Shown here: positions 2 to 9,554 of the stretch, piece by piece
How the letters are laid out: every line of letters begins with the position of its first letter
Position numbering within the stretch: position 1 is the first letter of the stretch
Source: Alcanivorax sp. 1008
GTDB lineage: Bacteria > Pseudomonadota > Gammaproteobacteria > Pseudomonadales > Alcanivoracaceae
Reading direction: 5' to 3'
DNA: 64,000 nt
NCBI RefSeq assembly: GCF_020667895.1
Contig: NZ_JAFMPS010000003.1
Span: forward strand, 63,586-127,585
Position numbers and translations under genes: made by a program
Notes under the pieces: model-generated
What the model was told of the DNA's origin: nothing
Database searches by the model: none
What the model saw: the letters and a program-made list of their open reading frames with translations, nothing else

Positions 2-3000
2 CCGGTGTTGCTCAAGAATTCCTATGATGCGCAGTTTGCTCCCGGCTGGTCCATCTCGAACTACCATGAGCTCGGGTCCGACGGCACTCTTTACCGTGGG
101 GATGGGGAAGTCGAGGAAAACTATTTCAAGTCGGAAATACTGAGAACCGGTATCACTACCAGTCAATATCCGGGCGACGATGGTAGCTATCGTAAAGGTG
201 GCAGTGATATCGACTACCGTGTCGCAGGCGATGGCATGCTCGTTGATACGGTCACCGGGCTTGCCTGGGAGTATACGGAAACCCCGCCAAAGTTCCGCAG
301 CGTTGTCGAAGCTCGTAATTACTGCGAGTCACTGGGTGCCACCTCAGGTTCAAACTGGCGCCTGCCCTCCGAGAAGGAGGCGATATATACGGTTGACAAA
401 TCCAGGGGCAATCATGATGCCGCCATGTATAACGTGGAGGCCCTCGGTTACTGGCGTGATACTACTTACAATCCCGCAGGCAATCCGCTGCCGGTTGTCT
501 GTGTAAACGGCGATCTGTTAGACGAGACCACTATCGACGGCCTTGTACGAGATGCGACGCGCGAAGTAGTGATCGACAGCAAAAATGGACTGATGTGGCA
601 GGATGATATGTCCACTACATCTGTAGAGCTGCCATGGGCGAGTGCTATTGACCACTGTGAGGCGTTGACTCACGCAGGCTTTGATGACTGGCGCTTGCCC
701 AATATCAATGAGCTGGTCTACACCTTGCCGAATACGGTGTTTGTCAATGAAACCGAGATTGACACGTCAATTCCATGGACCTATGCGGCGGGGCATCGTA
801 TGCCCTATTGGAGTTCCACACCGAACTTCCAGATCGCTGACACTTCCTGGGCGGTTGAAAGCGTCGGCTTTTCCTCGCCGCGATTCAGCCAGAATGAAGC
901 CAACCATGTACGTTGCGTTCGCGACGACCCGTCTGCTTTGCCGGTGCCCTATATTTTTGACGAGTACGGTCGCCATATCCGTACCATTGACCTGAATACT
1001 GGCGAAACACTCGTCACCTTCAACCACGATGCCGGCGGTCAGCTTGTTTCCATGACCAACCAGTATGGGCAAGACATCACTCTGCAACGTACAGGTTCAG
1101 TGCTGACGGGTATCACTGGCCCGTATGGCCATGAAACGACTATCCGGATGTCTGGCGCGCAGCAGATCAGTGCCATTGAGTACGAGGACGGCGGGTATAA
1201 CAACTTCACCTATACGGGTGATGGTTCGCTGCTGACACGCAGTTATAAGTCCAGTTATTCGTCTTCGTATGAGCGCTTCTACGATCAGCATGGCCGTGTT
1301 ACCCGGGCGATTGATCCGGAAGGTGGCGCATGGGACTTCTTCAGTGACAGGGTTGGCCTTAAGCAGGAGCGTTACGGCTACAGTACGGCTGAAAACAGTA
1401 TCTATCAGACCGTACGCAGTGTGCTGGATGGCGGTGATATTGAAAAGGTCACGACCCAGAAGAATGGCACAATCGTGATGGATACCATGCAGGCGGATCG
1501 CCTGAAGCAAACCACCGAGGTTTGCGGTGCAACCACGGTGATCGACAGTGTGCGCGACACCAAAACCCAGGAGGAGATCCCGTCTGTTGTGACGGTTACC
1601 CAGCCAAGTGGCTTGCAAAGCGTTACTCACATCACCAAGCAATATGGCGACAACGGTGCAAATTACCTGCAGCAGGTCATGAGTATTGATGCCAATGGCA
1701 GGACATCAAGCATTGCTATGGACTACGCCGCCGGAGAAAGCGTGGCTACGTCCGCAGAAGGTCGCATCACTCGCTCCGAGTTTGATCCATCTACTGGTCG
1801 CGTAACCCTGCGGGAAACCGATGGCTTGCTGCCGGTCGTCACGGACTATGACAGCGTTGGTCGTCCGACCACGATCACCCATGGCGCCCGCTCCACCCGC
1901 TACTACTACCACAGCAATGCCCAGGGCCAGATCAGCAGCATTGAGGCAAGCGATGGCAAGACCACAGAACTTACCTACGATGCCCTCGGCCGCATCGCCA
2001 CCATGAGTTACCCGGGCGGTGGCAGTGTGGCTTACGAGTACGACCTGCGTGGTAACTTGACTCAGGTGATCGTACCCTCCACCGGCGAGTACGACTTCAC
2101 CTTCAATGCTGTCGACAAGCCAGACAGCGACAGCAGCCCGCTTGATGAAGCCACTGTCCTGACTTATGACAAGGACCGCCGCCTGATCGATGTCGCCTTG
2201 CCATCAGGTGGCCATATCACCAATACCTACACCAATGACCAGCTCAGCCGTGTTGTCACGCCTGATACCACCATTGATTATCGGTACGCCTGCAATGGCA
2301 ACGTCAGCGAGATCAGCGAAGGCAGCGAAGTGCTGGCATTCTCCTACGATGGTGACCTGCTCACGGGTATCCAGTACAACGGCCAGCTGAATGCCACGAT
2401 CAGCCAGCGCTATAACAGCGACTTCGTCATCGACCAGATGAGCTACGCCGGTGCCAGCACCAGCTACGGCTACGACGACGACCTGTTGCTGACTCAAGCC
2501 AACGGCTTTGCCATCAGCAGAAACGCCCGGCATGGCTTGCCGGAGGCGATTACCGCGACAGGCTACCAGCAGCAGCGCAGCTACAATGCCTACGGCGAAC
2601 CACAGAACGTCAGCACCCGCGTAGCCGGCAACACCGCCTACAGCTACAGCCTGACCTACAACGACCTGGGCCTGATCGTCGGCAAAACCGAAACCCTGCA
2701 CGACGGCAGCAGCCACCAGTACGTCTACAGCTACGACGACAACCGCCGCCTGAAGAGCGTGATGAAAAATGGCGTGCTGGCTGAGTCCTACGCCTACGAC
2801 CACAACGGCAACCGTACCAGCCAGACCAATACGGCCCGCGGCATCCCCGGGCAAACGGCCAGTTACAACATCGCCGACCAGTTGACTCAGGACGGTAACG
2901 TCACCTACCAGTACGACGCCGATGGCTACCTGACCCGCAAAACCGACGGCAGTGATATCACCTACTACCAATACAGTCGGCAGGGCAGGCTGCTGAGCGT

Positions 3001-4015
3001 ACAAACCCCGACCGATCTGATCGAGTACCGCCACAACGCCCTGGGCAATCGCGTGGCCAAACTGTTCAACGGGCAAATAACAGAAAAATACCTGTGGCTG
3101 GACAAGACCACGTTGCTGGCGACCTATGATGGCAACAACAACCTCAAGCAGCGCTTCGAGTACACACTGGGGCATACACCGACCAGCTTTACGCAGAATG
3201 GCAATCGTTACTACATCGCGACCGATCACCTTGGCTCAATGAGAGCGATCAGCGACGCCAGCGGCAACATCGTAAAGGCTGTCAGCTACGACAGCTATGG
3301 TAATACACTGAACGACAGCAACCCCGCGTTCAGAATCCCGTTCGGCTTTGCCGGTGGCTTGCAGGATGGTGATACCGGACTGATCCGATTTGGGTTCAGG
3401 GATTATGATCCGAGTGTTGGGCGTTGGACGGCTAGGGATCCGATTGGGTTGGGTGGCGGGGATAACGTTTACGCATATGTTCAGAATGATCCTGTTCGGT
3501 TGATTGATCCAGCAGGTCAGTTTGGTTTGGTTGGGGGAGCGGTAGGTGCGGTTATAGGCGGTGTTGGCAATGCTGTTACTACGGGAATGACAGGTGGTAG
3601 TGCTGGGGATATTGCGATTGCATTCGGCGTAGGAGCATTAACCGGTGGGGTTATGGGGGCAACTGGAGGAGCGGCGGGAGGCCTTCTGACATGGATGCTC
3701 CCAGGGGCGGTTGGCGGTGCTATAACAGGCGGATTAACCAGCTTTGCCACTGGGGGGTCAGGATCTGATGCAGCTTTGGCTGCACTTTTGGGCGGATCTA
3801 TAGGGGCGCTTGGCGGTGGAGCCGGTAATGCTATGGCTTTTAAGAATGCTCTTGCAGCTTTTAGGAAGGGGTTAGGCGTTAACGGTAGTATTGCTCGTGG
3901 TGACATAGCTGGAAAATTGTCTGATTTTCTTGCAAGCTTGAGTATTTTTTTTACCGCCGAGCAACTTCAGCAGTTAATTGAAAATATGGATTTGTATGAA
4001 GGCGACGGCTGTTGA
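2..4015 (+). CDS. RHS-repeat polymorphic toxin, 5' partial, glycine-rich C-terminal tip
   Basis: The reading frame is open from the window edge, so the true N-terminus lies upstream; numbering here is from the GTG at base 5 (1336 residues). Two DUF1566/Lcl-type modules are visible at about 78-168 and 188-307 (GLAWEY...WRLP and GLMWQD...WRLP...YWSST). YD/RHS repeats run from about 320 to 1145 and end in the RHS core signature DPIGL at 1145-1149. After LIDPAG (1166-1171) comes a tip of about 165 residues, rich in G/A and glycine-zipper-like, with an AEQLQQLIENM end. RHS proteins are large secreted or surface proteins whose variable tip is the toxin. The tip is less GC-rich than the core, which suggests separate acquisition. 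The tip resembles that of the next cassette, and its stop overlaps a small membrane-protein gene. Membrane or pore action of the tip is my inference. Confidence 0.9.
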   Translation, partial: PVLLKNSYDAQFAPGWSISNYHELGSDGTLYRGDGEVEENYFKSEILRTGITTSQYPGDDGSYRKGGSDIDYRVAGDGMLVDTVTGLAWEYTETPPKFRSVVEARNYCESLGATSGSNWRLPSEKEAIYTVDKSRGNHDAAMYNVEALGYWRDTTYNPAGNPLPVVCVNGDLLDETTIDGLVRDATREVVIDSKNGLMWQDDMSTTSVELPWASAIDHCEALTHAGFDDWRLPNINELVYTLPNTVFVNETEIDTSIPWTYAAGHRMPYWSSTPNFQIADTSWAVESVGFSSPRFSQNEANHVRCVRDDPSALPVPYIFDEYGRHIRTIDLNTGETLVTFNHDAGGQLVSMTNQYGQDITLQRTGSVLTGITGPYGHETTIRMSGAQQISAIEYEDGGYNNFTYTGDGSLLTRSYKSSYSSSYERFYDQHGRVTRAIDPEGGAWDFFSDRVGLKQERYGYSTAENSIYQTVRSVLDGGDIEKVTTQKNGTIVMDTMQADRLKQTTEVCGATTVIDSVRDTKTQEEIPSVVTVTQPSGLQSVTHITKQYGDNGANYLQQVMSIDANGRTSSIAMDYAAGESVATSAEGRITRSEFDPSTGRVTLRETDGLLPVVTDYDSVGRPTTITHGARSTRYYYHSNAQGQISSIEASDGKTTELTYDALGRIATMSYPGGGSVAYEYDLRGNLTQVIVPSTGEYDFTFNAVDKPDSDSSPLDEATVLTYDKDRRLIDVALPSGGHITNTYTNDQLSRVVTPDTTIDYRYACNGNVSEISEGSEVLAFSYDGDLLTGIQYNGQLNATISQRYNSDFVIDQMSYAGASTSYGYDDDLLLTQANGFAISRNARHGLPEAITATGYQQQRSYNAYGEPQNVSTRVAGNTAYSYSLTYNDLGLIVGKTETLHDGSSHQYVYSYDDNRRLKSVMKNGVLAESYAYDHNGNRTSQTNTARGIPGQTASYNIADQLTQDGNVTYQYDADGYLTRKTDGSDITYYQYSRQGRLLSVQTPTDLIEYRHNALGNRVAKLFNGQITEKYLWLDKTTLLATYDGNNNLKQRFEYTLGHTPTSFTQNGNRYYIATDHLGSMRAISDASGNIVKAVSYDSYGNTLNDSNPAFRIPFGFAGGLQDGDTGLIRFGFRDYDPSVGRWTARDPIGLGGGDNVYAYVQNDPVRLIDPAGQFGLVGGAVGAVIGGVGNAVTTGMTGGSAGDIAIAFGVGALTGGVMGATGGAAGGLLTWMLPGAVGGAITGGLTSFATGGSGSDAALAALLGGSIGALGGGAGNAMAFKNALAAFRKGLGVNGSIARGDIAGKLSDFLASLSIFFTAEQLQQLIENMDLYEGDGC

Positions 4016-4035
4016 GAATAAGCGACGGGGTTCAA

Positions 4036-4323
4036 ATGGTGTATCTTATATCAGTGTTTTTGGGGCTGGCTTTGGCTGTAATTGGCATTTATGTAATCAG
4101 GTGGATTTTGAGTTATAAGAATAAAAAGCAGTTTCATCATATTCGTCTTTTAGGCATCGTGATCGTTTCTTTTGTTGGGCCTTTTTTTATTTATGTGCTT
4201 AGACTTATAGAGGGTAGATTGGGAATGGATGGGCTTCAGAGTGGCATTTTCTTTTCTATATCTGTTTTGGTCGGAATGTTAATGGTTGGATGGTACGTGA
4301 ATCCATTTAACAGGGGTCGATAA
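4036..4323 (+). CDS. small three-helix membrane protein, candidate RHS immunity protein (Imm-A1)
   Basis: A protein of about 95 residues starts at ATG 4036; a TTG at 4012 would overlap the RHS stop by 4 bases. Three hydrophobic segments are visible (about 2-25, 38-57, 69-88) with a basic loop KNKKQFHH between the first two. The second helix begins with IRLLGIVIVSFVGPFFIY, nearly the same motif as in the protein at 5684 (IRLLGIVVISSSGPLCIY). It lies directly behind a toxin tip, is AT-rich and matches no family I know, so an immunity role is the natural inference. An inner-membrane location would fit a membrane-active toxin. Confidence 0.7.
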   Translation: MVYLISVFLGLALAVIGIYVIRWILSYKNKKQFHHIRLLGIVIVSFVGPFFIYVLRLIEGRLGMDGLQSGIFFSISVLVGMLMVGWYVNPFNRGR

Positions 4324-4388
4324 AGGTAGGTCATGTAAGCGATTTTGAATGTGTGGCAGTGATTTCTAGGGATGGAGGCCGTCGACTT

Positions 4389-4441
4389 GCCTACAATGCC
4401 CTAGCCGCATCGCCACCATGAGTTAACCGCGCGGCAACCTG
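4389..4441 (+). pseudogene. degenerate RHS core scrap forming a chimeric junction
   Basis: Bases 4389-4423 match the RHS core DNA at 1974-2009 (YDALGRIATMS) but carry a deletion that shifts the frame. An in-frame TAA at 4424-4426 follows for the downstream cassette frame. A short RGNL-like piece then joins to core sequence that corresponds to base 2790 onward. The stretch is therefore a recombination scar between distant parts of the core and not a gene start. The sequence between 4324 and 4388 shows nothing recognisable. Confidence 0.6.
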
Positions 4442-5674
4442 GTTGAATCCTACGGCTACGACCACAACGGCAACCGTACCAGTCAGACCAATACGGCCCG
4501 CGGCATCGCAGGGCAAACGGCCAGCTACAACATCGCCGACCAGCTGACTCAGGACGGTAACGTCACCTACCAGTACGACGCCGATGGCTACCTGACCCGC
4601 AAAACCGACGGCAGTGACATCACCTACTACCAATACAGCCGACAGGGCAGGCTGCTGAGCGTGCAAACCCCGATTGACCTGATCGAGTACCGCCACAACG
4701 CCCTCGGCAATCGCGTGGCCAAACTGGTCAACGGGCAAGTAACAGAAAAATACCTGTGGCTGGACAAGACCACGCTGCTGGCGATCTACGATGGCAACAA
4801 CAACCTCAAGCAACGCTTCGAGTACACGCTTGGCCATACGCCGACCAGCTTTACGCAGAATGGCAATCGTTACTACATCGCGACCGATCACCTTGGCTCA
4901 ATGAGAGCGATCAGCGACGCCAGCGGCAACATCGTAAAGGCTGTCAGCTACGACAGCTATGGTAATACACTGAACGACAGCAACCCATCCTTCGTGATCC
5001 CGTTCGGCTTTGCCGGTGGCTTGCAGGATCGTGATACCGGACTGATCCGATTCGGGTTCAGGGATTATGATCCGAGTGTTGGGCGCTGGACGGCGAGGGA
5101 TCCGATTGGGTTGGGTGATGGGCCGAATATTTATGCTTATGTGAGGAATGACCCTGTCAGATTTGTTGATCCGACTGGTCGGTATGCGCATATTATTGCT
5201 GGAGGATTGATTGGCGGAGTAGGAAATGCCTTAGGAACTTACTTTGCTGGTAACAGAGATGCATTTTCTTTGGTAACTTCTTTTGCAATTGGTGCTGGTA
5301 CAGGAGCGGCTTTTGCAGCAACTGGTGGTGCTGCCGGTGGTGGAAGTGCGCTGGCATGGATGAAAAATGGCTTAGCTGCAGGAGCAATAACCGGAGGTGG
5401 TACTGAGCTTGCCTTGAACGGACTTTCATCTGACGTTGCAGTGCAAACTCTTATGGGGGCTTCGGTTGGTATTTTAGGTGGAGGCATAGGAAATGCGGCT
5501 GCATTAAAGAGTGCCTTACAGCAATTGCATAAAGGATTAGGTAAAAATATATCACGATCTGATTTAGCAGGAGCTCTGACTGATTTGTACGCTAGTTTAT
5601 TCATATCATTTACAGCCGATCAGCTGGCTCAGATTATTGACCAATATTTAGAGGCCGGCGGGTCTTGTAATTAA
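4427..5674 (+). CDS. orphan RHS C-terminal cassette 2 (core end plus glycine-rich tip)
   Basis: The frame is open from just after the TAA at 4424 to 5674; the first possible internal start is GTG 4661. It has no secretion or N-terminal region. Bases 4442-5120 repeat the core DNA of the first RHS gene (about 2787-3460) almost exactly, including WLDKTTLL and the DPIGL core signature. After VDPTG (ending 5179) a tip of about 164 residues begins. It is homologous to the first tip: both have a GG(V/A)GNA start, an ATGGAAGG block, GNA(M/A)A(F/L)K, a KGLG turn and an FTA(E/D)QL end. It is probably a silent or recombinational reserve tip that becomes functional when core homology swaps it onto the full-length gene, and its immunity gene follows. 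Independent translation is uncertain. Confidence 0.75.
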   Translation, partial: PRGNLVESYGYDHNGNRTSQTNTARGIAGQTASYNIADQLTQDGNVTYQYDADGYLTRKTDGSDITYYQYSRQGRLLSVQTPIDLIEYRHNALGNRVAKLVNGQVTEKYLWLDKTTLLAIYDGNNNLKQRFEYTLGHTPTSFTQNGNRYYIATDHLGSMRAISDASGNIVKAVSYDSYGNTLNDSNPSFVIPFGFAGGLQDRDTGLIRFGFRDYDPSVGRWTARDPIGLGDGPNIYAYVRNDPVRFVDPTGRYAHIIAGGLIGGVGNALGTYFAGNRDAFSLVTSFAIGAGTGAAFAATGGAAGGGSALAWMKNGLAAGAITGGGTELALNGLSSDVAVQTLMGASVGILGGGIGNAAALKSALQQLHKGLGKNISRSDLAGALTDLYASLFISFTADQLAQIIDQYLEAGGSCN

Positions 5675-5683
5675 GGAGTGAAA

Positions 5684-5983
5684 ATGCATTATCTTGTTCC
5701 AATAATTCTTGGAGTGATATTCTCATTTTTTACTATGTTTATTATTAAATGGATTATTGATAAAAGAGAGCATAAGAACATTGAGAATATAAGATTGTTA
5801 GGAATAGTTGTGATATCCAGCAGTGGTCCTTTATGTATCTATTTACTTAGAGTTTACTTAGAGAATTTTGATCTTGATAAAGATGTTTACGGTATTGCTT
5901 TTATGATCGTAGTGATAGGAGGGCTATTTACATTTTGGAACGTTTTAAAACCTTATAAGGATATTAATAAGAATAAGGATTAG
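5684..5983 (+). CDS. small three-helix membrane protein, candidate RHS immunity protein (Imm-A2)
   Basis: ATG 5684 has a good Shine-Dalgarno AAGGAG at 5673-5678; the in-frame GTG at 5678 lies inside that site, so ATG is preferred (99 residues). Three hydrophobic segments are visible (about 4-24, 37-57, 71-90) with a charged loop KREHKNIEN. It is clearly homologous to the protein at 4036: same size, same topology, and the shared motif N/H-I-R-L-L-G-I-V with GP further on. It follows a tip homologous to the tip ahead of the 4036 gene, so toxin tip and small membrane partner vary together. Base composition is very AT-rich compared with the RHS core. The immunity function is inferred from position and covariation. 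Confidence 0.75.
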   Translation: MHYLVPIILGVIFSFFTMFIIKWIIDKREHKNIENIRLLGIVVISSSGPLCIYLLRVYLENFDLDKDVYGIAFMIVVIGGLFTFWNVLKPYKDINKNKD

Positions 5984-6045: not shown

Positions 6046-7356
6046 TCCCCTGCCATCAGCTATAGCTACGACGACAACCGCCGCCTGAAAAGCGTGATGA
6101 AGGATGGCGTGCTGGCTGAATCCTACGGCTACGACCACAACGGCAACCGTACCAGCCAGACCAATACGGCCCGCGGCATCGCCTGGCAAACGGCCAGCTA
6201 CAACATCGCCGACCAGTTGACCCAGGACGGTAACGTCACCTACCAGTACGACGCCGATGGCTACCTGACCCGCAAAACCGACGGCAGTGACATCACCTAC
6301 TACCAGTACAGCCGACAGGGCAGGCTGCTGAGCGTACAAACCCCGACCGACCTGATCGAGTACCGCCACAACGCCCTGGGCAATCGCGTGGCCAAACTGT
6401 TCAACGGGCAAGTAACAGAAAAATACCTGTGGCTGGACAAGACCACGCTGCTGGCGATCTACGATGGCAACAACAACCTCAAGCAACGCTTCGAGTACAC
6501 GCTTGGCCATACGCCGACCAGCTTTACGCAGAATGGCAATCGTTACTACATCGCGACCGATCACCTTGGCTCAATGAGAGCGATCAGCGACGCCAGCGGC
6601 AACATCGTAAAGGCTGTCAGCTACGACAGCTATGGTAATACACTGAACGACAGCAACCCCGCGTTCAGAATCCCGTTCGGCTTTGCCGGTGGCTTGCAGG
6701 ATGGTGATACCGGACTGATCCGATTTGGGTTCAGGGATTATGACCCGAGTGTTGGGCGTTGGACGGCTAGGGATCCGATTGGGTTAAATGGGGGCTTAAA
6801 TGTTTACGGGTATGTTGGCGGAGATCCTTTGAGTTCGGTTGACCTTTTGGGGCTCCTTAGTCAAACGCAAATTGGAGGGATCGGCGGTGCTATTGGTGGC
6901 GCAATATCGGGTGCGATATCAGGTGCTGGGATTGGTGCTGCTGCAGGTATGATTACCGGTCCCGGAGCTCTTGCGTCAGCCGCGGTTGGGGGACTCATGG
7001 GGGCCATCGCTGGTGGTGCAAGTGGGTATATTGCTGGTTCTGCTGCCGCGGCTTCTCCGCTGATTGGTGGTCCGTTAGCTGCGGCCGGTATGGGCTTGAT
7101 TGCAGAAGGGCCGTCCGGTGCGATTGCTGCTGGGGTCGGTGCTCTGGCCGGAGGGATGATGTCGGGTTTGCCGGAGCCGGCCGCATCAATGGGCGGGGCG
7201 GCTGTTGGTGGTGCTGTTGTTGGAGGAATGATAGCAGGAGGCGGGTGGATTGGTGGCGCTATAGGAGGGGCTGTAGGTGGCGCTGTGGGGGCAGCCCTTA
7301 ATTGTGGCTATGGCTATTGCACGCCTTCGCCAGATCGACCTCGCTGCCCTAATTAG
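6046..7356 (+). CDS. orphan RHS C-terminal cassette 3 (core end plus long glycine-zipper tip)
   Basis: The frame is open from 6046, with a GTG at 6094 as the first likely start (420 residues from there). Bases 6060-6783 repeat the core DNA of the first RHS gene (about 2734-3450) nearly identically and end in DPIGLNGGLNVYGYV. From about 6850 comes a tip of about 168 residues almost wholly made of G/A/I/V small-residue repeats such as GGAIGGAISGAISGAGIG, followed by a Cys- and Pro-containing tail (CGYGYCTPSPDRPRCPN). The repeats resemble the glycine-zipper segments of membrane-inserting proteins. It is not obviously homologous to tips 1 and 2 beyond composition. It lacks an N-terminal delivery region, and its partner gene starts 14 bases downstream. 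Confidence 0.75.
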   Translation, partial: SPAISYSYDDNRRLKSVMKDGVLAESYGYDHNGNRTSQTNTARGIAWQTASYNIADQLTQDGNVTYQYDADGYLTRKTDGSDITYYQYSRQGRLLSVQTPTDLIEYRHNALGNRVAKLFNGQVTEKYLWLDKTTLLAIYDGNNNLKQRFEYTLGHTPTSFTQNGNRYYIATDHLGSMRAISDASGNIVKAVSYDSYGNTLNDSNPAFRIPFGFAGGLQDGDTGLIRFGFRDYDPSVGRWTARDPIGLNGGLNVYGYVGGDPLSSVDLLGLLSQTQIGGIGGAIGGAISGAISGAGIGAAAGMITGPGALASAAVGGLMGAIAGGASGYIAGSAAAASPLIGGPLAAAGMGLIAEGPSGAIAAGVGALAGGMMSGLPEPAASMGGAAVGGAVVGGMIAGGGWIGGAIGGAVGGAVGAALNCGYGYCTPSPDRPRCPN

Positions 7357-7370
7357 TTAATCCTTCCCGT

Positions 7371-7799
7371 ATGGAAAAGTTGGGCATTATTATGATCCTG
7401 AAAAAAAACCATATTTTTATCTTTTCTATTATAGCTGTTGTATTTTCGGCGTCCCTTCTGTGGATGTATTTCTCAGTGCTTATATTCTTGAGGCATGGTT
7501 TTGATGTAGTTCTATATTCTTTGATCTTGCCAACTTCTTTGCTATTTATATTTTTCATCCTTGTTTTTAATGAATGCTCATTTTTCATTGATGAGGGCGG
7601 GGTTGGGAAAGGTGTTTTTATAAAGAAAAAAATTGAATGGAATAAAATTAATTCCATTAAAATGGTGAGTAATAGGCCTTACATTGTCGAGATTTCTGGG
7701 CCTCAATATATTATTCGAATTAATATTTTATTTTTTAAAGACTTCTCTCGGGTTGTACTTTCTTTAGAAGAGGAGAGGGCGCGTAGGGGAAATTATTGA
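7371..7799 (+). CDS. two-helix membrane protein with soluble C-terminal domain, candidate immunity protein
   Basis: This protein of 142 residues starts at ATG 7371, or at ATG 7392, which gives MILKKNHIF; neither has a strong ribosome site. Two long hydrophobic helices (about 14-35 and 44-66) precede a soluble part of about 70 residues rich in beta-prone residues (KIEWNKINSIKMVSNRPYIV), a pattern seen in small membrane proteins with a PH-like domain. It is AT-rich, unlike the RHS core around it. It follows tip 3 directly, so immunity to that tip is inferred; I do not recognise the family. Its TGA overlaps the next RHS fragment frame by four bases. Confidence 0.65.
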   Translation: MEKLGIIMILKKNHIFIFSIIAVVFSASLLWMYFSVLIFLRHGFDVVLYSLILPTSLLFIFFILVFNECSFFIDEGGVGKGVFIKKKIEWNKINSIKMVSNRPYIVEISGPQYIIRINILFFKDFSRVVLSLEEERARRGNY

Positions 7800-8319
7800 A
7801 CCTGATCGAGTACACGCTTGGCCATACGCCGACTAGCTTTACGCAGAACGACAATCGTTACTACATCGCGACCGATCACCTTGGCTCGCCGAGCGCAATC
7901 AGTGATGCCAGCGGCAACATCGTCAAGGCTGTGAGCTATGACAGCTATGGTAATACACTCAGTGACAGCAACCCCGCATTCACCATTCCGTTTGGCTTTG
8001 CCGGTGGCTTGCAGGATAGCGATACCGGGCTAATCCGGTTTGGGTTTAGGGATTATGATCCGAGTGTCAGGCGATGGACGGCAAGGGATCCGATTGGATT
8101 GAATGGTGGGTTAAATGTTTACGGGTACGTTGTCGGGGATCCGGTCAATCTGGTTGACCCCGAGGGCCTAGAGCCAGCTTTCCCGGGGGTTTCGTTTGGG
8201 GGGGGGCAGATTTTGGTGGGCTCAGTCCATGGGGGGGTGCTAGTGCGGGGTATCGCGTGGCCGGCAATGTGGGTGGTGCTATTGATGGGATCAAATGTCA
8301 TGTTCAATGCTCTAGGTAA
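7796..8319 (+). pseudogene. RHS C-terminal cassette 4, frameshifted at a G9 tract
   Basis: From 7803 the sequence reads LIEYTLGHTPTSF and then follows the RHS core to DPIGLNGGLNVYGYV and VDPEGL (about 8166). Compared with cassette 3 it lacks about 134 bases, with the join inside CGAGTAC, present at both ends of the missing piece. At 8198-8206 there are nine G. With nine, the frame runs on into the lipoprotein gene and stops at 9139. In the next frame, reached with ten or seven G, it continues as GADFGGLSPWGGASAGYRV and NVGGAIDG and stops at 8317-8319, which looks like a normal short RHS ending. I therefore treat it as a frameshifted tip or a phase-variable one. Confidence 0.6.
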
Positions 8320-9139
8320 GGTGTGCCTCCATAGGTTTCCCCGGCTAGTCTTTTTTGTGCCCATTCTTTTTTTGGGCGCATGTGGCGAAAGCCCCAATGG
8401 TGGTATGCAGGCGCTTATCTACGGTAACAGTGACTCCGGCCATAGTGACGAGGTGTTGCTGAAGAAATATAAGGAAGTGCTTGAAGATGCTCACTATGTA
8501 GTGGTGGAAACAGATGGGCTGAATCCTGAAGCGGGTGATTACGTTGAGAAGGTCTACAAGAAGCTGTCACTCTGTCGTTACTCAGAGTGTAATGACTATA
8601 TTCAGGATTATGCGATTCTAGCTAAACTTATAGATCAGATTACCAGCAATGTTGTTTCGGAGTCTGAGCTGGCTCACTTTCGACCGTGGTCCATATACTA
8701 CAGTGCGATGGAGATTTTTACCTCTGAGTGTCGCCGTAGGACTGCAGCAAATAGCCGTTCTCTTGAAAAACGTATTATTGAGCATGCAAGGGGGCTTGAA
8801 TCTTATATGGGGGATGTTGTTGGCGTGCATGAGAAGATACTTGCTGCTTCATTGGAGGAAGACCATGTGTATCTCAATGCAATAAAATCATTTGATGCGC
8901 TATCTATAGATTCTCTTTGTGACGGCAATCCTGTTTATTCTCCCAAGGTCTTTGATGTTAGTCATTCGATGGTAAGAAGCATCGTAGAAAGTCGCATGAC
9001 TGATAGGATTTATTCATTAGAAAATAGATATGGCGTGGCGATTTTTCAATCGGAAATGTATTGCGGAAGCTCATATTTGAGGCGTCTGATTCCTCTTCAT
9101 AGGGAGTCGCTTTCTTGTGGAAACGCAGATGAATTTTGA
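8300..9139 (+). CDS. predicted lipoprotein of unknown function, in-frame fused to RHS cassette 4
   Basis: ATG 8300 (alternatives ATG 8285 and 8270) gives a type II signal peptide: basic n-region, hydrophobic RLVFFVPILF, lipobox LGAC. The mature part of about 250 residues is hydrophilic and mostly helical, with scattered cysteines (SLCRYSEC, TSECRRR, SLCDG, EMYCG). I do not recognise a family. Because of the G9 tract the same frame also runs in from the RHS fragment at 7796, so automatic annotation may fuse the two. A lipoprotein next to a toxin tip could be a periplasm-facing immunity protein; this is inference from position only. It overlaps the next small gene by about 11 bases. Confidence 0.6.
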   Translation: MFNALGKVCLHRFPRLVFFVPILFLGACGESPNGGMQALIYGNSDSGHSDEVLLKKYKEVLEDAHYVVVETDGLNPEAGDYVEKVYKKLSLCRYSECNDYIQDYAILAKLIDQITSNVVSESELAHFRPWSIYYSAMEIFTSECRRRTAANSRSLEKRIIEHARGLESYMGDVVGVHEKILAASLEEDHVYLNAIKSFDALSIDSLCDGNPVYSPKVFDVSHSMVRSIVESRMTDRIYSLENRYGVAIFQSEMYCGSSYLRRLIPLHRESLSCGNADEF

Positions 9140-9434
9140 AGTTTTACTATCATCTGCGTACGGTGCGGCATATGGAGCAGCATTTGCGGTAATATTGGTT
9201 CCTTTGTATTCATGGGCTTTACGTCAAAGGGAAAACGTGCGCATATTGACTACTACCTTTGTTGCGTGTTTAGGGCCTGCTTTCATGATTGCCAACAAAA
9301 AAACCACCGAATTTCTTATGATTCCTGAAAACGAAGACTGGAGTGGAATATCTTTTGCGCTTCTAGGCGTCATGATTTTCATTTTTTATGGAATAAAGTT
9401 AAAAATTTTTAGCCGTAAACCACGGCGGGATTAA
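9129..9434 (+). CDS. small three-helix membrane protein, distant relative of the Imm-A pair
   Basis: ATG 9129 (or GTG 9117 with four extra residues) gives 101 residues. There are three hydrophobic segments (about 8-30, 40-56, 72-90) and a basic tail KIFSRKPRRD. The second helix starts ENVRILTTTFVACLGPAFMI, which lines up with ENIRLLGIVVISSSGPLCIY of the 5684 protein: same position, [IV]-R-[IL]-L and GP kept. It is likely a third, diverged member of the same small membrane family. No matching glycine-rich tip lies directly before it; the lipoprotein does. It may be an orphan immunity gene left by an earlier tip replacement. Confidence 0.6.
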   Translation: MNFEVLLSSAYGAAYGAAFAVILVPLYSWALRQRENVRILTTTFVACLGPAFMIANKKTTEFLMIPENEDWSGISFALLGVMIFIFYGIKLKIFSRKPRRD

Positions 9435-9467
9435 TTTCTGTATTACATGAATGGTCAGTGAATCGCC

Positions 9468-9554
9468 CGAGATGAGCTACGCCGGCGCCACCATCAGCTA
9501 CGGCTATGACGACGACCTGTTGCTGACTCAGGCTAACGGCTTTGCTATCAGCGG
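9468..9554 (+). pseudogene. short RHS core remnant
   Basis: Translated in frame this gives EMSYAGATISYGYDDDLLLT and then QANGFAISG, matching the first RHS gene around base 2434-2520 (QMSYAGASTSYGYDDD). The match stops abruptly at about 9554, where unrelated sequence and a REP palindrome begin. It marks the right edge of the RHS locus. Confidence 0.8.

What the first reader, a model, noticed from the sequence alone, without database searches (positions are those of the whole stretch)
3518..5983. A homologous pair of glycine-rich toxin tips, each with a homologous three-helix membrane partner
Tips 1 and 2 (each about 165 residues) share order and end motif, and the genes right after them (4036 and 5684) share size, topology and the motif IRLLGIV...GP. 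Tip and partner therefore co-vary, as expected of a toxin-immunity pair. The Gly/Ala-rich tip and the membrane partner together suggest a membrane-inserting toxin family that I cannot name.
Basis: partly seen in the sequence, partly recalled or inferred. Interest (0 to 1): 0.8.

Follow-up and report, generated by a model that had tools for sequence, protein, structure and literature searches.

The report
Putative membrane toxins on teneurin-like protein
A giant bacterial surface protein related to animal teneurins carries swappable toxin-like tips, two of which look built to act on membranes and each comes with its own matching membrane bodyguard gene; the tips also carry a telltale odd cysteine that may leash them inside the protein shell.

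Summary
Tips 1 and 2 are 52% identical over 109 residues and their partners 38% over 88. A third homologous pair occurs in an Oceanospirillales MAG; non-homologous tips there and here have non-homologous partners. Pfam, NCBIfam, PADLOC and PHROGs name no family for them.

The carrier is a lipoprotein Rhs of the bacterial Teneurin-like (TLP) type, aligning to the cryo-EM TLP 9pt5 at E 5e-66 and 1e-83, but without a detected NHL propeller. Tip 2 sits in a downstream cassette without the carrier start. Most likely the tips are membrane-acting toxins neutralised by three-helix immunity proteins; toxicity, pore formation and immunity are inferred.

The shared "end motif" is mainly a terminal cysteine and looks carrier-wide: 37 of 37 counted TLP tips have an odd cysteine number, against 14 of 22 size-matched tips on other Rhs (p 1.4e-4; post hoc, rows dropped as told). 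All 30 TLP carriers examined have a cysteine just before the FN-plug cleavage site. This fits a general disulfide leash, seen once before (C719-C2216). One TLP outside the data set has an even count, against the rule.

The parts
2..4015 (+). 3' part of the giant TLP/Rhs lipoprotein gene (open frame 3738 aa, begins upstream of the window): Lcl_C domains, YD-shell, tip 1
3437..3517 (+). DPIGL-18-DPAG autocleavage motif that should release tip 1
   Evidence: meaning of the motif from PMC9637101 (passages) and PMC13018210 (section 7)
3518..4015 (+). tip 1: 165-aa Gly/Ala-rich putative membrane toxin; its only Cys is its last residue (4010-4012)
4036..4323 (+). partner 1: 95-aa three-helix membrane protein, putative immunity
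4439..5179 (+). Rhs core fragment without the carrier start (4439-5157 is 93% identical in DNA to 2777-3495); could graft tip 2 onto the main gene by recombination
5180..5674 (+). tip 2: homologue of tip 1; its single Cys is the second-last residue (5666-5668)
5684..5983 (+). partner 2: 99-aa membrane protein with three hydrophobic segments, putative immunity; AAGGAG just upstream of the ATG
6060..6849 (+). third Rhs core fragment (6060-6816 is 95% identical in DNA to 2725-3481); second catalytic motif reads DLLG
6850..7356 (+). tip 3: not homologous to tips 1/2; glycine-zipper pattern beyond composition (14 GxxxGxxxG, 4.08 expected)
7371..7799 (+). partner 3: 142 aa with two strong hydrophobic segments; not homologous to partners 1/2
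7806..8142 (+). fourth Rhs core fragment, followed by a tip 4 whose frame is unclear (G9 run)
9117..9434 (+). weak homologue of the partners (three hydrophobic segments, R..GP..G.xF pattern), perhaps an orphan immunity gene

Best explanation
A lipid-anchored Teneurin-like/Rhs surface protein displays a YD-repeat shell that encloses and, by aspartyl autoproteolysis at DPIGL-18-DPxG, releases a C-terminal tip. Tips 1 and 2 belong to one new family of Gly/Ala-rich helical tips. They most likely insert in the inner membrane of a contacted competitor and depolarise or permeabilise it. The downstream three-helix inner-membrane protein binds the inserted tip and protects the producer. Tip 2 and partner 2 are a silent cassette that can replace tip 1 by recombination in the 93%-identical core. 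While stored, the tip's single terminal cysteine probably forms a disulfide with the FN-plug cysteine (AAC-T-G-S) next to the other cleavage site, leashing tip to carrier until reduction or delivery. Shown here: homology, carrier type, motif, cassette structure, co-variation, cysteine pattern. Inferred: toxicity, membrane target, immunity, recombination, disulfide, delivery.
For: Tip and partner homology far above shuffles, a third pair in another organism, and no partner cross-matches among non-homologous pairs. Carrier aligned to the solved bacterial TLP over TTR-TIP-FN-plug and YD-shell. LSAC lipobox read by eye. VipB/TssC not found in the 99.78%-complete genome, so no T6SS route was seen. 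Same carrier with a different tip and a different following gene in another genus of the family. Tips 3, 1 and 2 are the three most hydrophobic of the 34 tips tabulated, and tips whose partner has a hydrophobic segment beyond residue 30 are more hydrophobic (28 clusters, 8 against 20, Mann-Whitney p 6e-4). Partner model with three helices at mean pLDDT 82. Recombination that expresses an orphan tip is published for Salmonella Rhs (PMC3967940, abstract). A hydrophobic TLP tip that permeabilises E. coli when given a signal peptide is published (PMC13018210, section 8).
Against: No toxicity or immunity data. The tip model is poor (pLDDT 48) and tip hydropathy is marginal: one segment above 1.6 in tip 1, none in tip 2. 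GxxxGxxxG is not in excess of composition in tips 1 and 2 (p 0.052 and 0.30). The family is very rare: own genome only in 46, 390, 369 and 398 genomes, apart from three hits judged OmpA-type or lipoprotein, plus one MAG. The C-terminal ~45 residues are poorly conserved in the third member. In one search some moderately hydrophobic tips (up to GRAVY 0.20) had no such partner, and two tips at -0.25 did.
Confidence: 0.62

Rival explanations
1. The Gly-rich half is a translocation/entry module, and the toxic act resides in the C-terminal 60-110 residues inside the cell; the membrane partner blocks entry rather than a pore.
For: A glycine zipper can serve effector entry (Tde1, PMC10240207, abstract), and CDI ionophores have separate entry and toxin domains (PMC11630599, abstract and passages). 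Unrelated Rhs tips printed carry look-alike Gly-rich N-terminal stretches (L060, L068, L069, L119; by eye). The ~2400-aa Rhs proteins carry long Gly-rich stretches before other C-termini (by eye).
Against: Of these look-alikes only L069 (E 0.0077) and L060 (0.16) score to the N-part profile, and L069 scores 8.7e-4 to the C-part profile, so shared ancestry of a module is not established. The C-terminal stretch is short for an enzyme and matched no family.
Confidence: 0.22
2. The partners are not immunity proteins but membrane accessories (chaperone, receptor or export helper) needed by this tip type.
For: Only position and co-variation are known; accessory genes can co-vary too.
Against: In the published TLP study almost all TLP genes have a gene in this position, and one (M. 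fibrata) was shown to bind and neutralise its tip (PMC13018210, passages). The carrier has its own export signal. Partners differ with the tip, not with the carrier.
Confidence: 0.08
3. The downstream cassettes are decaying remnants without function; only tip 1 matters.
For: The core fragments lack the carrier start; tip 3 has DLLG instead of DPxG; tip 4's frame is unclear at a G9 run.
Against: Tips 2 and 3 and their partners are intact reading frames; tip 2 keeps both catalytic Asp and the terminal Cys; core identity of 93-97% among the first three copies allows recombination.
Confidence: 0.15
4. The likeness between tips, and between partners, is low-complexity or membrane-protein coincidence.
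For: Gly/Ala-rich and transmembrane sequences often match spuriously; profile searches gave OmpA-type and lipoprotein false hits.
Against: z 26.5 and 22.2 against composition-preserving shuffles, and a third pair elsewhere.
Confidence: 0.01

Closest known systems
Bacterial Teneurin-like proteins (BiTLP, PDB 9pt5/9ifo; PMC13018210)
   Same: TTR, TIP, FN-plug and YD-shell align; DPxG motif; lipobox; gene directly downstream; BiTLP's own tip is hydrophobic and membrane-active; Cys beside the FN-plug G|S cleavage site
   Different: No NHL propeller detected, Lcl_C domains instead; thrombospondin-3 and PKD repeats; tip 1 alone does not find BiTLP, although the whole-window alignment runs 46 residues into tip 1; cassette array
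Tse5/Tsi5 (P. aeruginosa T6SS Rhs pore-former; PMC9637101)
   Same: Rhs shell, DPXGL-18-DPXGL release, membrane-acting tip, membrane immunity protein
   Different: VgrG/T6SS-delivered, whereas TssC was not found here; Tsi5 has two predicted transmembrane regions, these partners three; tip likeness to Tse5-CT could not be tested
CDI type-10 ionophores with CdiI (EC93; PMC11630599)
   Same: Small (72-100 aa) very hydrophobic immunity proteins with ~30% identity within groups; polymorphic cognate pairs
   Different: CdiI are predicted two-helix hairpins; CdiA carrier with VENN; ionophore domains are predicted five-helix bundles
EsxX/ExiCD glycine-zipper toxin (S. aureus; PMC12744356)
   Same: C-terminal membrane-depolarising toxin with glycine zipper, polytopic membrane immunity proteins
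   Different: LXG/T7SS carrier; two membrane plus two soluble immunity proteins; here only tip 3 has a zipper beyond composition
Salmonella orphan Rhs tips (PMC3967940)
   Same: Downstream gene fragment with its own immunity gene, activated by recombination
   Different: Carrier and tip families differ (not compared by sequence); recombination not observed here

Membership tests
Bacterial Teneurin-like proteins | TTR, TIP and FN-plug homologous to BiTLP | tested here: met
   query residues 24-456 of 544 aligned, E 5e-66; Pfam TTR_TEN1-4 33.0 bits, cutoff 27
Bacterial Teneurin-like proteins | YD-shell homologous to Teneurin | tested here: met
   TEN_YD-shell 110.3 bits, cutoff 50; 9pt5 E 1e-83
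Bacterial Teneurin-like proteins | NHL beta-propeller between FN-plug and YD-shell | tested here: not met
   no NHL family at E<=0.01, Lcl_C reported; alignment to 9pt5 starts at its residue 1277, FN-plug alignment ends at 836
Bacterial Teneurin-like proteins | Lipoprotein (SPII) signal in Gram-negatives | tested here: inconclusive
   LTLSAC lipobox near the start, read by eye; no signal-peptide predictor available
Bacterial Teneurin-like proteins | Tip enclosed in the shell with disulfide to FN-plug (seen in BiTLP) | not testable with these tools
   Compatible cysteines present; no structure
Rhs polymorphic toxins | Rhs core, bipartite DPxG-18-DPxG motif, variable tip, downstream partner gene | tested here: met
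Rhs polymorphic toxins | Tip toxic, partner protective | not testable with these tools
   needs expression
T6SS PAAR-Rhs pore-formers (Tse5) | T6SS in the genome | tested here: not met
   VipB/TssC in 0 of 1 genome; of 14 control genomes it rings in E. coli only
T6SS PAAR-Rhs pore-formers (Tse5) | Tip homologous to Tse5-CT | tested here: inconclusive
   no Tse5 hit, but the Tse5 chain listed (8cp6_B) is 1121 aa long and so seems to lack the toxin part (1169-1317 in PMC9637101)
CDI type-10 ionophores | Two-helix hairpin immunity protein | tested here: not met
   three helices in partner 1; three hydrophobic segments in both partners
Glycine-zipper toxins | GxxxGxxxG beyond composition | tested here: not met
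   tip 1 p 0.052, tip 2 p 0.30, third member p 0.58; only tip 3 exceeds it (p 0.000 of 1000 shuffles)

The most novel reading that the evidence does not exclude
Bacterial teneurin-like toxins in general store their tip on a disulfide leash. Every carrier has a cysteine beside the FN-plug cleavage site and every tip, whatever its family, keeps one cysteine unpaired, so its cysteine count is odd. Cassette swapping is then restricted to tips that obey the odd-cysteine rule, and release would depend on reduction. Tips 1 and 2 of this window obey it with their only cysteine at the very C-terminus. (Probability lowered from 0.5 to 0.45 after the size-matched control.)
Probability: 0.45. Interest if true: 0.7.

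Novelty: new variant of a known kind. Interest (0 to 1): 0.55.

Why it matters
It adds an undescribed membrane-type toxin/immunity family to the recently described bacterial teneurin relatives. It also offers a simple, testable rule (odd cysteines in the tip, one cysteine at the FN-plug cut) for how such tips are stored, matched to a carrier and released. If right, the rule could help find tip boundaries and cassettes and say which tips are exchangeable, and it bears on what animal teneurins lost when they stopped being toxins.

Tried and rejected
Tip hits outside the family: L007, L010 and L011 were read and rejected as OmpA-type or lipoprotein glycine-rich proteins. The tip was sought without result in viral contigs, plasmids and phages, the partners in plasmids, and the carrier in phages and viral contigs; in plasmids the carrier gave one Streptomyces TLP. 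Foldseek of partner 1 against the PDB gave nothing at E<=0.001; the tip model was not searched because of its low confidence. PADLOC gave nothing and PHROGs nothing below E 0.005. Strict glycine-zipper status of tips 1/2 was dropped. A shared, widespread Gly-rich pre-toxin module was tested and left open (weak). Covariation of the FN-plug Cys with the tip Cys could not be tested because no examined carrier lacks the Cys.

Cysteine parity, rows and choices. Seen first and formalised on mostly the same data, so it is post hoc. At FN score 45 the TLP set was 37 odd of 38; the even one, L137 (score 47), looks like the ~2400-aa Rhs family whose other members were labelled control, and I moved it to the controls after seeing its count. 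L057's 36-aa tip with no Cys was dropped by the 60-aa limit. Not counted: tips at contig ends (L058, L063, L065, L067, L072, L078), the broken main frames of L069 and L076, window tip 4 (frame unclear; one frame would hold 2 Cys), and a 69-aa L066 tip with 1 Cys that one search listed and one search's regex missed. The near-identical L023 and L024 tips are counted as TLP because their core matches this carrier, though no carrier lies beside them. The three L005 tips (3, 1 and 1 Cys) were left out because their carrier is not on the contig. Controls: 38 genomes I chose by handle from the family and order, 40 stretches fetched; 8 of them (L123, L124, L125, L127, L131, L132, L138, L147) gave no counted control tip, although one search had listed L124 with 5 (open frame) and L127 with 4; L134 proved to be a TLP. 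The full control set is 17 odd of 35 (Fisher 1e-7 by tip, 7e-5 by cluster), but 13 of those 35 are longer than 260 aa: eight are even-numbered members of the ~2400-aa family and two (L149, L150) have misplaced boundaries inside the Rhs repeats. With controls of 60-260 aa the figures are 14 odd of 22 (p 1.4e-4 by tip, 2.7e-4 by cluster; among tips with two or more Cys 13 of 13 against 7 of 12, p 0.015). Three of these controls, all odd, belong to tip clusters also found on TLP carriers, so parity may travel with a tip family. The one TLP from outside the data set (Streptomyces) has 2 Cys and breaks the rule; with it and L057 added as failures p is 0.003 against the size-matched controls.
Full report
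What is there. The window starts inside one very long gene. The contig upstream shows it as part of a 3738-aa open frame that begins after a gene I take for murB (from recall). It has a lipobox (LTLSAC, read by eye). Pfam finds thrombospondin type 3 repeats, PKD domains, Lcl_C domains and a Teneurin TTR domain, then a Teneurin YD-shell at 110 bits. It ends with DPIGL-18-DPAG and tip 1. Downstream lie three more pieces of the same core DNA: 4439-5157 and 6060-6816 match the main gene at 93% and 95%, and 7806-8123 at 86%. The second and third lead into a tip and a following membrane-type gene; the fourth leads into a tip of unclear frame. A 91-base remnant at 9462-9552 closes the array. This resembles the main-gene-plus-orphan layout published for Salmonella Rhs (PMC3967940, abstract).

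Check of the observation. Tip 1 and tip 2 match at 52% identity over 109 aa (E 7e-29). Partners 1 and 2 match at 38% over 88 aa (E 3e-17). Because such sequences are compositionally odd, I compared real scores with 500 shuffles each: tips z 26.5, partners z 22.2, no shuffle as high. AlphaFold2 on three-row alignments gave a three-helix partner (mean pLDDT 82) and an all-helical but poor tip (pLDDT 48).

Recurrence elsewhere. A profile of the two tips found one relative among 560 candidate stretches in the species-genome collection: L005, an Oceanospirillales MAG contig. Its tip is followed after 75 bases by a 95-aa protein with the pattern ...VRFFALISISLLGP.... Its tip scores z 18.2 and 21.6 to tips 1 and 2, its partner 12.4 and 10.9 to partners 1 and 2. 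The same contig carries a second tip type twice (z 78.8), each time next to a second partner type (z 56.8). Partners 1, 2 and L5b against the partners L5a, L5c and 7371 give z between -0.7 and 0.9 in all nine comparisons. Among tips 1, 2 and L5b against tips 3, L5a and L5c the highest z is 2.9 (tip 1 with Gly-rich tip 3), far below the homologous pairs; tip 3 with L5a gives 3.6. Tip and partner thus change together.

Rarity. The tip protein or profile found only the own genome (two matches) in 46 family genomes. It found the own genome plus one OmpA-type protein in 390 order genomes, the own genome plus two false hits in 369 class genomes, and the own genome only in 398 phylum genomes at E<=1e-5. 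The partner profile found only the own genome in 369 class genomes. These samples overlap. Pfam, NCBIfam, PADLOC, PHROGs and the PDB give no family.

Carrier. The TTR-to-FN-plug stretch aligns to the cryo-EM bacterial Teneurin-like protein (9pt5/9ifo) at E 5e-66, and the window part aligns along its YD-shell at E 1e-83, running 46 residues into tip 1. Tip 1 with twelve core residues, searched alone up to E 10, found only a spider fibroin at 0.038, so likeness to the BiTLP tip is not established. No NHL propeller was found at E<=0.01; Lcl_C domains were. So it is a TLP variant rather than a textbook member. The same carrier in another genus of the family (G040) ends in an unrelated tip with a different following gene, the mark of a polymorphic toxin. 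TssC was not found in the genome, so T6SS delivery is unlikely; how the tip would reach a target is not known from these data.

Why membrane action. Carrier relatives occur at 28 places in 21 of 340 class genomes, own genome included. I fetched 26 stretches and read tips and following genes there, in this window, in the G040/G041 loci and in L134. Among 28 tip clusters with a following gene, the 8 whose partner has a hydrophobic segment starting beyond residue 30 have more hydrophobic tips than the other 20 (Mann-Whitney p 6e-4); tip hydropathy correlates with the partner's number of hydrophobic segments (Spearman 0.51, p 0.006). Tips 3, 1 and 2 of this window rank first to third of 34. Following genes were picked by a simple start/Shine-Dalgarno score, five labelled tips had none, and L137 was still in the 34. 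Because the window's own pairs are among the 8, the test is not independent of them. BiTLP's hydrophobic tip permeabilises E. coli when sent to the periplasm (PMC13018210, section 8). All this supports, and does not prove, a membrane target. Strict glycine zippers are not in excess in tips 1 and 2.

The end motif and the cysteine rule. Tip 1 has one cysteine, its last residue; tip 2 has one, the second last; the third member ends GSCR and has two more near its start. BiTLP has one known disulfide of this kind, C2216 of the tip to C719 beside the second (FN-plug) cleavage site (PMC13018210, section 7). The carrier here has AACTGS at that place; in the alignment its Cys lies two residues from C719. 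All 30 TLP carriers examined have a cysteine within ten residues before that site, placed by alignment to queries that themselves hold the Cys. All 37 counted tips on TLP loci (31 sequence clusters) have an odd number of cysteines: 24 with one, 13 with 3, 5 or 11. On other Rhs carriers the count is odd in 17 of 35 tips, and in 14 of 22 of comparable length, which is the fairer control (Fisher 1.4e-4 by tip, 2.7e-4 by cluster). The simplest reading is that other cysteines pair within the tip and one is left for the carrier. Against it: the pattern was noticed in these data, one borderline locus was reassigned, a short tip was dropped, three odd controls share a tip family with TLP tips, and the only TLP from outside the set (Streptomyces) has two cysteines; counting that and the short tip as failures, p is 0.003. 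The main text of PMC13018210 mentions the disulfide for BiTLP only in the passages seen ('disulfide' twice, 'cysteine' once); its supplement was not available. Two searches listed no paper whose title or abstract start states such a rule.

Papers seen. PMC13018210: outline, passages, sections 7 and 8. PMC11630599: abstract, passages, first part of the Discussion. PMC9637101 and PMC12744356: abstract and passages. PMC3482391: passages. PMC10240207 and PMC3967940: abstract. All others: search listings only.

Verdict. Real, and best read as two members of an undescribed membrane-type toxin/immunity family on a teneurin-like Rhs carrier. The function is inferred. The wider cysteine pattern is the more surprising lead and needs an independent count.

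Noticed in passing
window 4010-4012 and 5666-5668; L022, L055-L080, L134: Counted tips on Teneurin-like carriers have an odd number of cysteines (37 of 37) more often than size-matched tips on other Rhs carriers (14 of 22); all 30 carriers have a Cys just before the FN-plug cleavage site. One Streptomyces TLP (L151) breaks the rule.
   Followed up: partly
window 9117-9434: A weak homologue of the partners overlaps the end of a lipoprotein-like gene (8300-9139) after a tip 4 of unclear frame; perhaps an orphan immunity gene.
   Followed up: partly
window 6850-7799: Tip 3 is extremely Gly/Ala-rich (53%) with 14 GxxxGxxxG and is followed by an unrelated membrane protein with two strong hydrophobic segments; its core has DLLG instead of DPxG, so release may fail.
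   Followed up: partly
L005 2-867 and 3848-4922: A second tip family occurs twice on the MAG contig, each time with a 97-aa partner that has CPxC-type cysteine pairs and a hydrophobic segment.
   Followed up: partly
window 2-950 and L008 8969-13999: The teneurin-like carrier has Lcl_C domains where teneurins have the NHL propeller.
   Followed up: no
window 8198-8206: A run of nine G lies in tip 4, whose frame is unclear; it could be a phase-variable or decayed tip.
   Followed up: no
L023 and L024: Two genomes of another genus share nearly the same orphan Rhs tip segment, flanked by pieces that look like recombinase or transposase genes (by eye, not searched), suggesting movement of the cassette.
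   Followed up: no
L119, L122, L126: Some tips on ordinary Rhs carriers cluster with tips on Teneurin-like carriers (clusters 36 and 66), so tips seem to move between carrier types.
   Followed up: no
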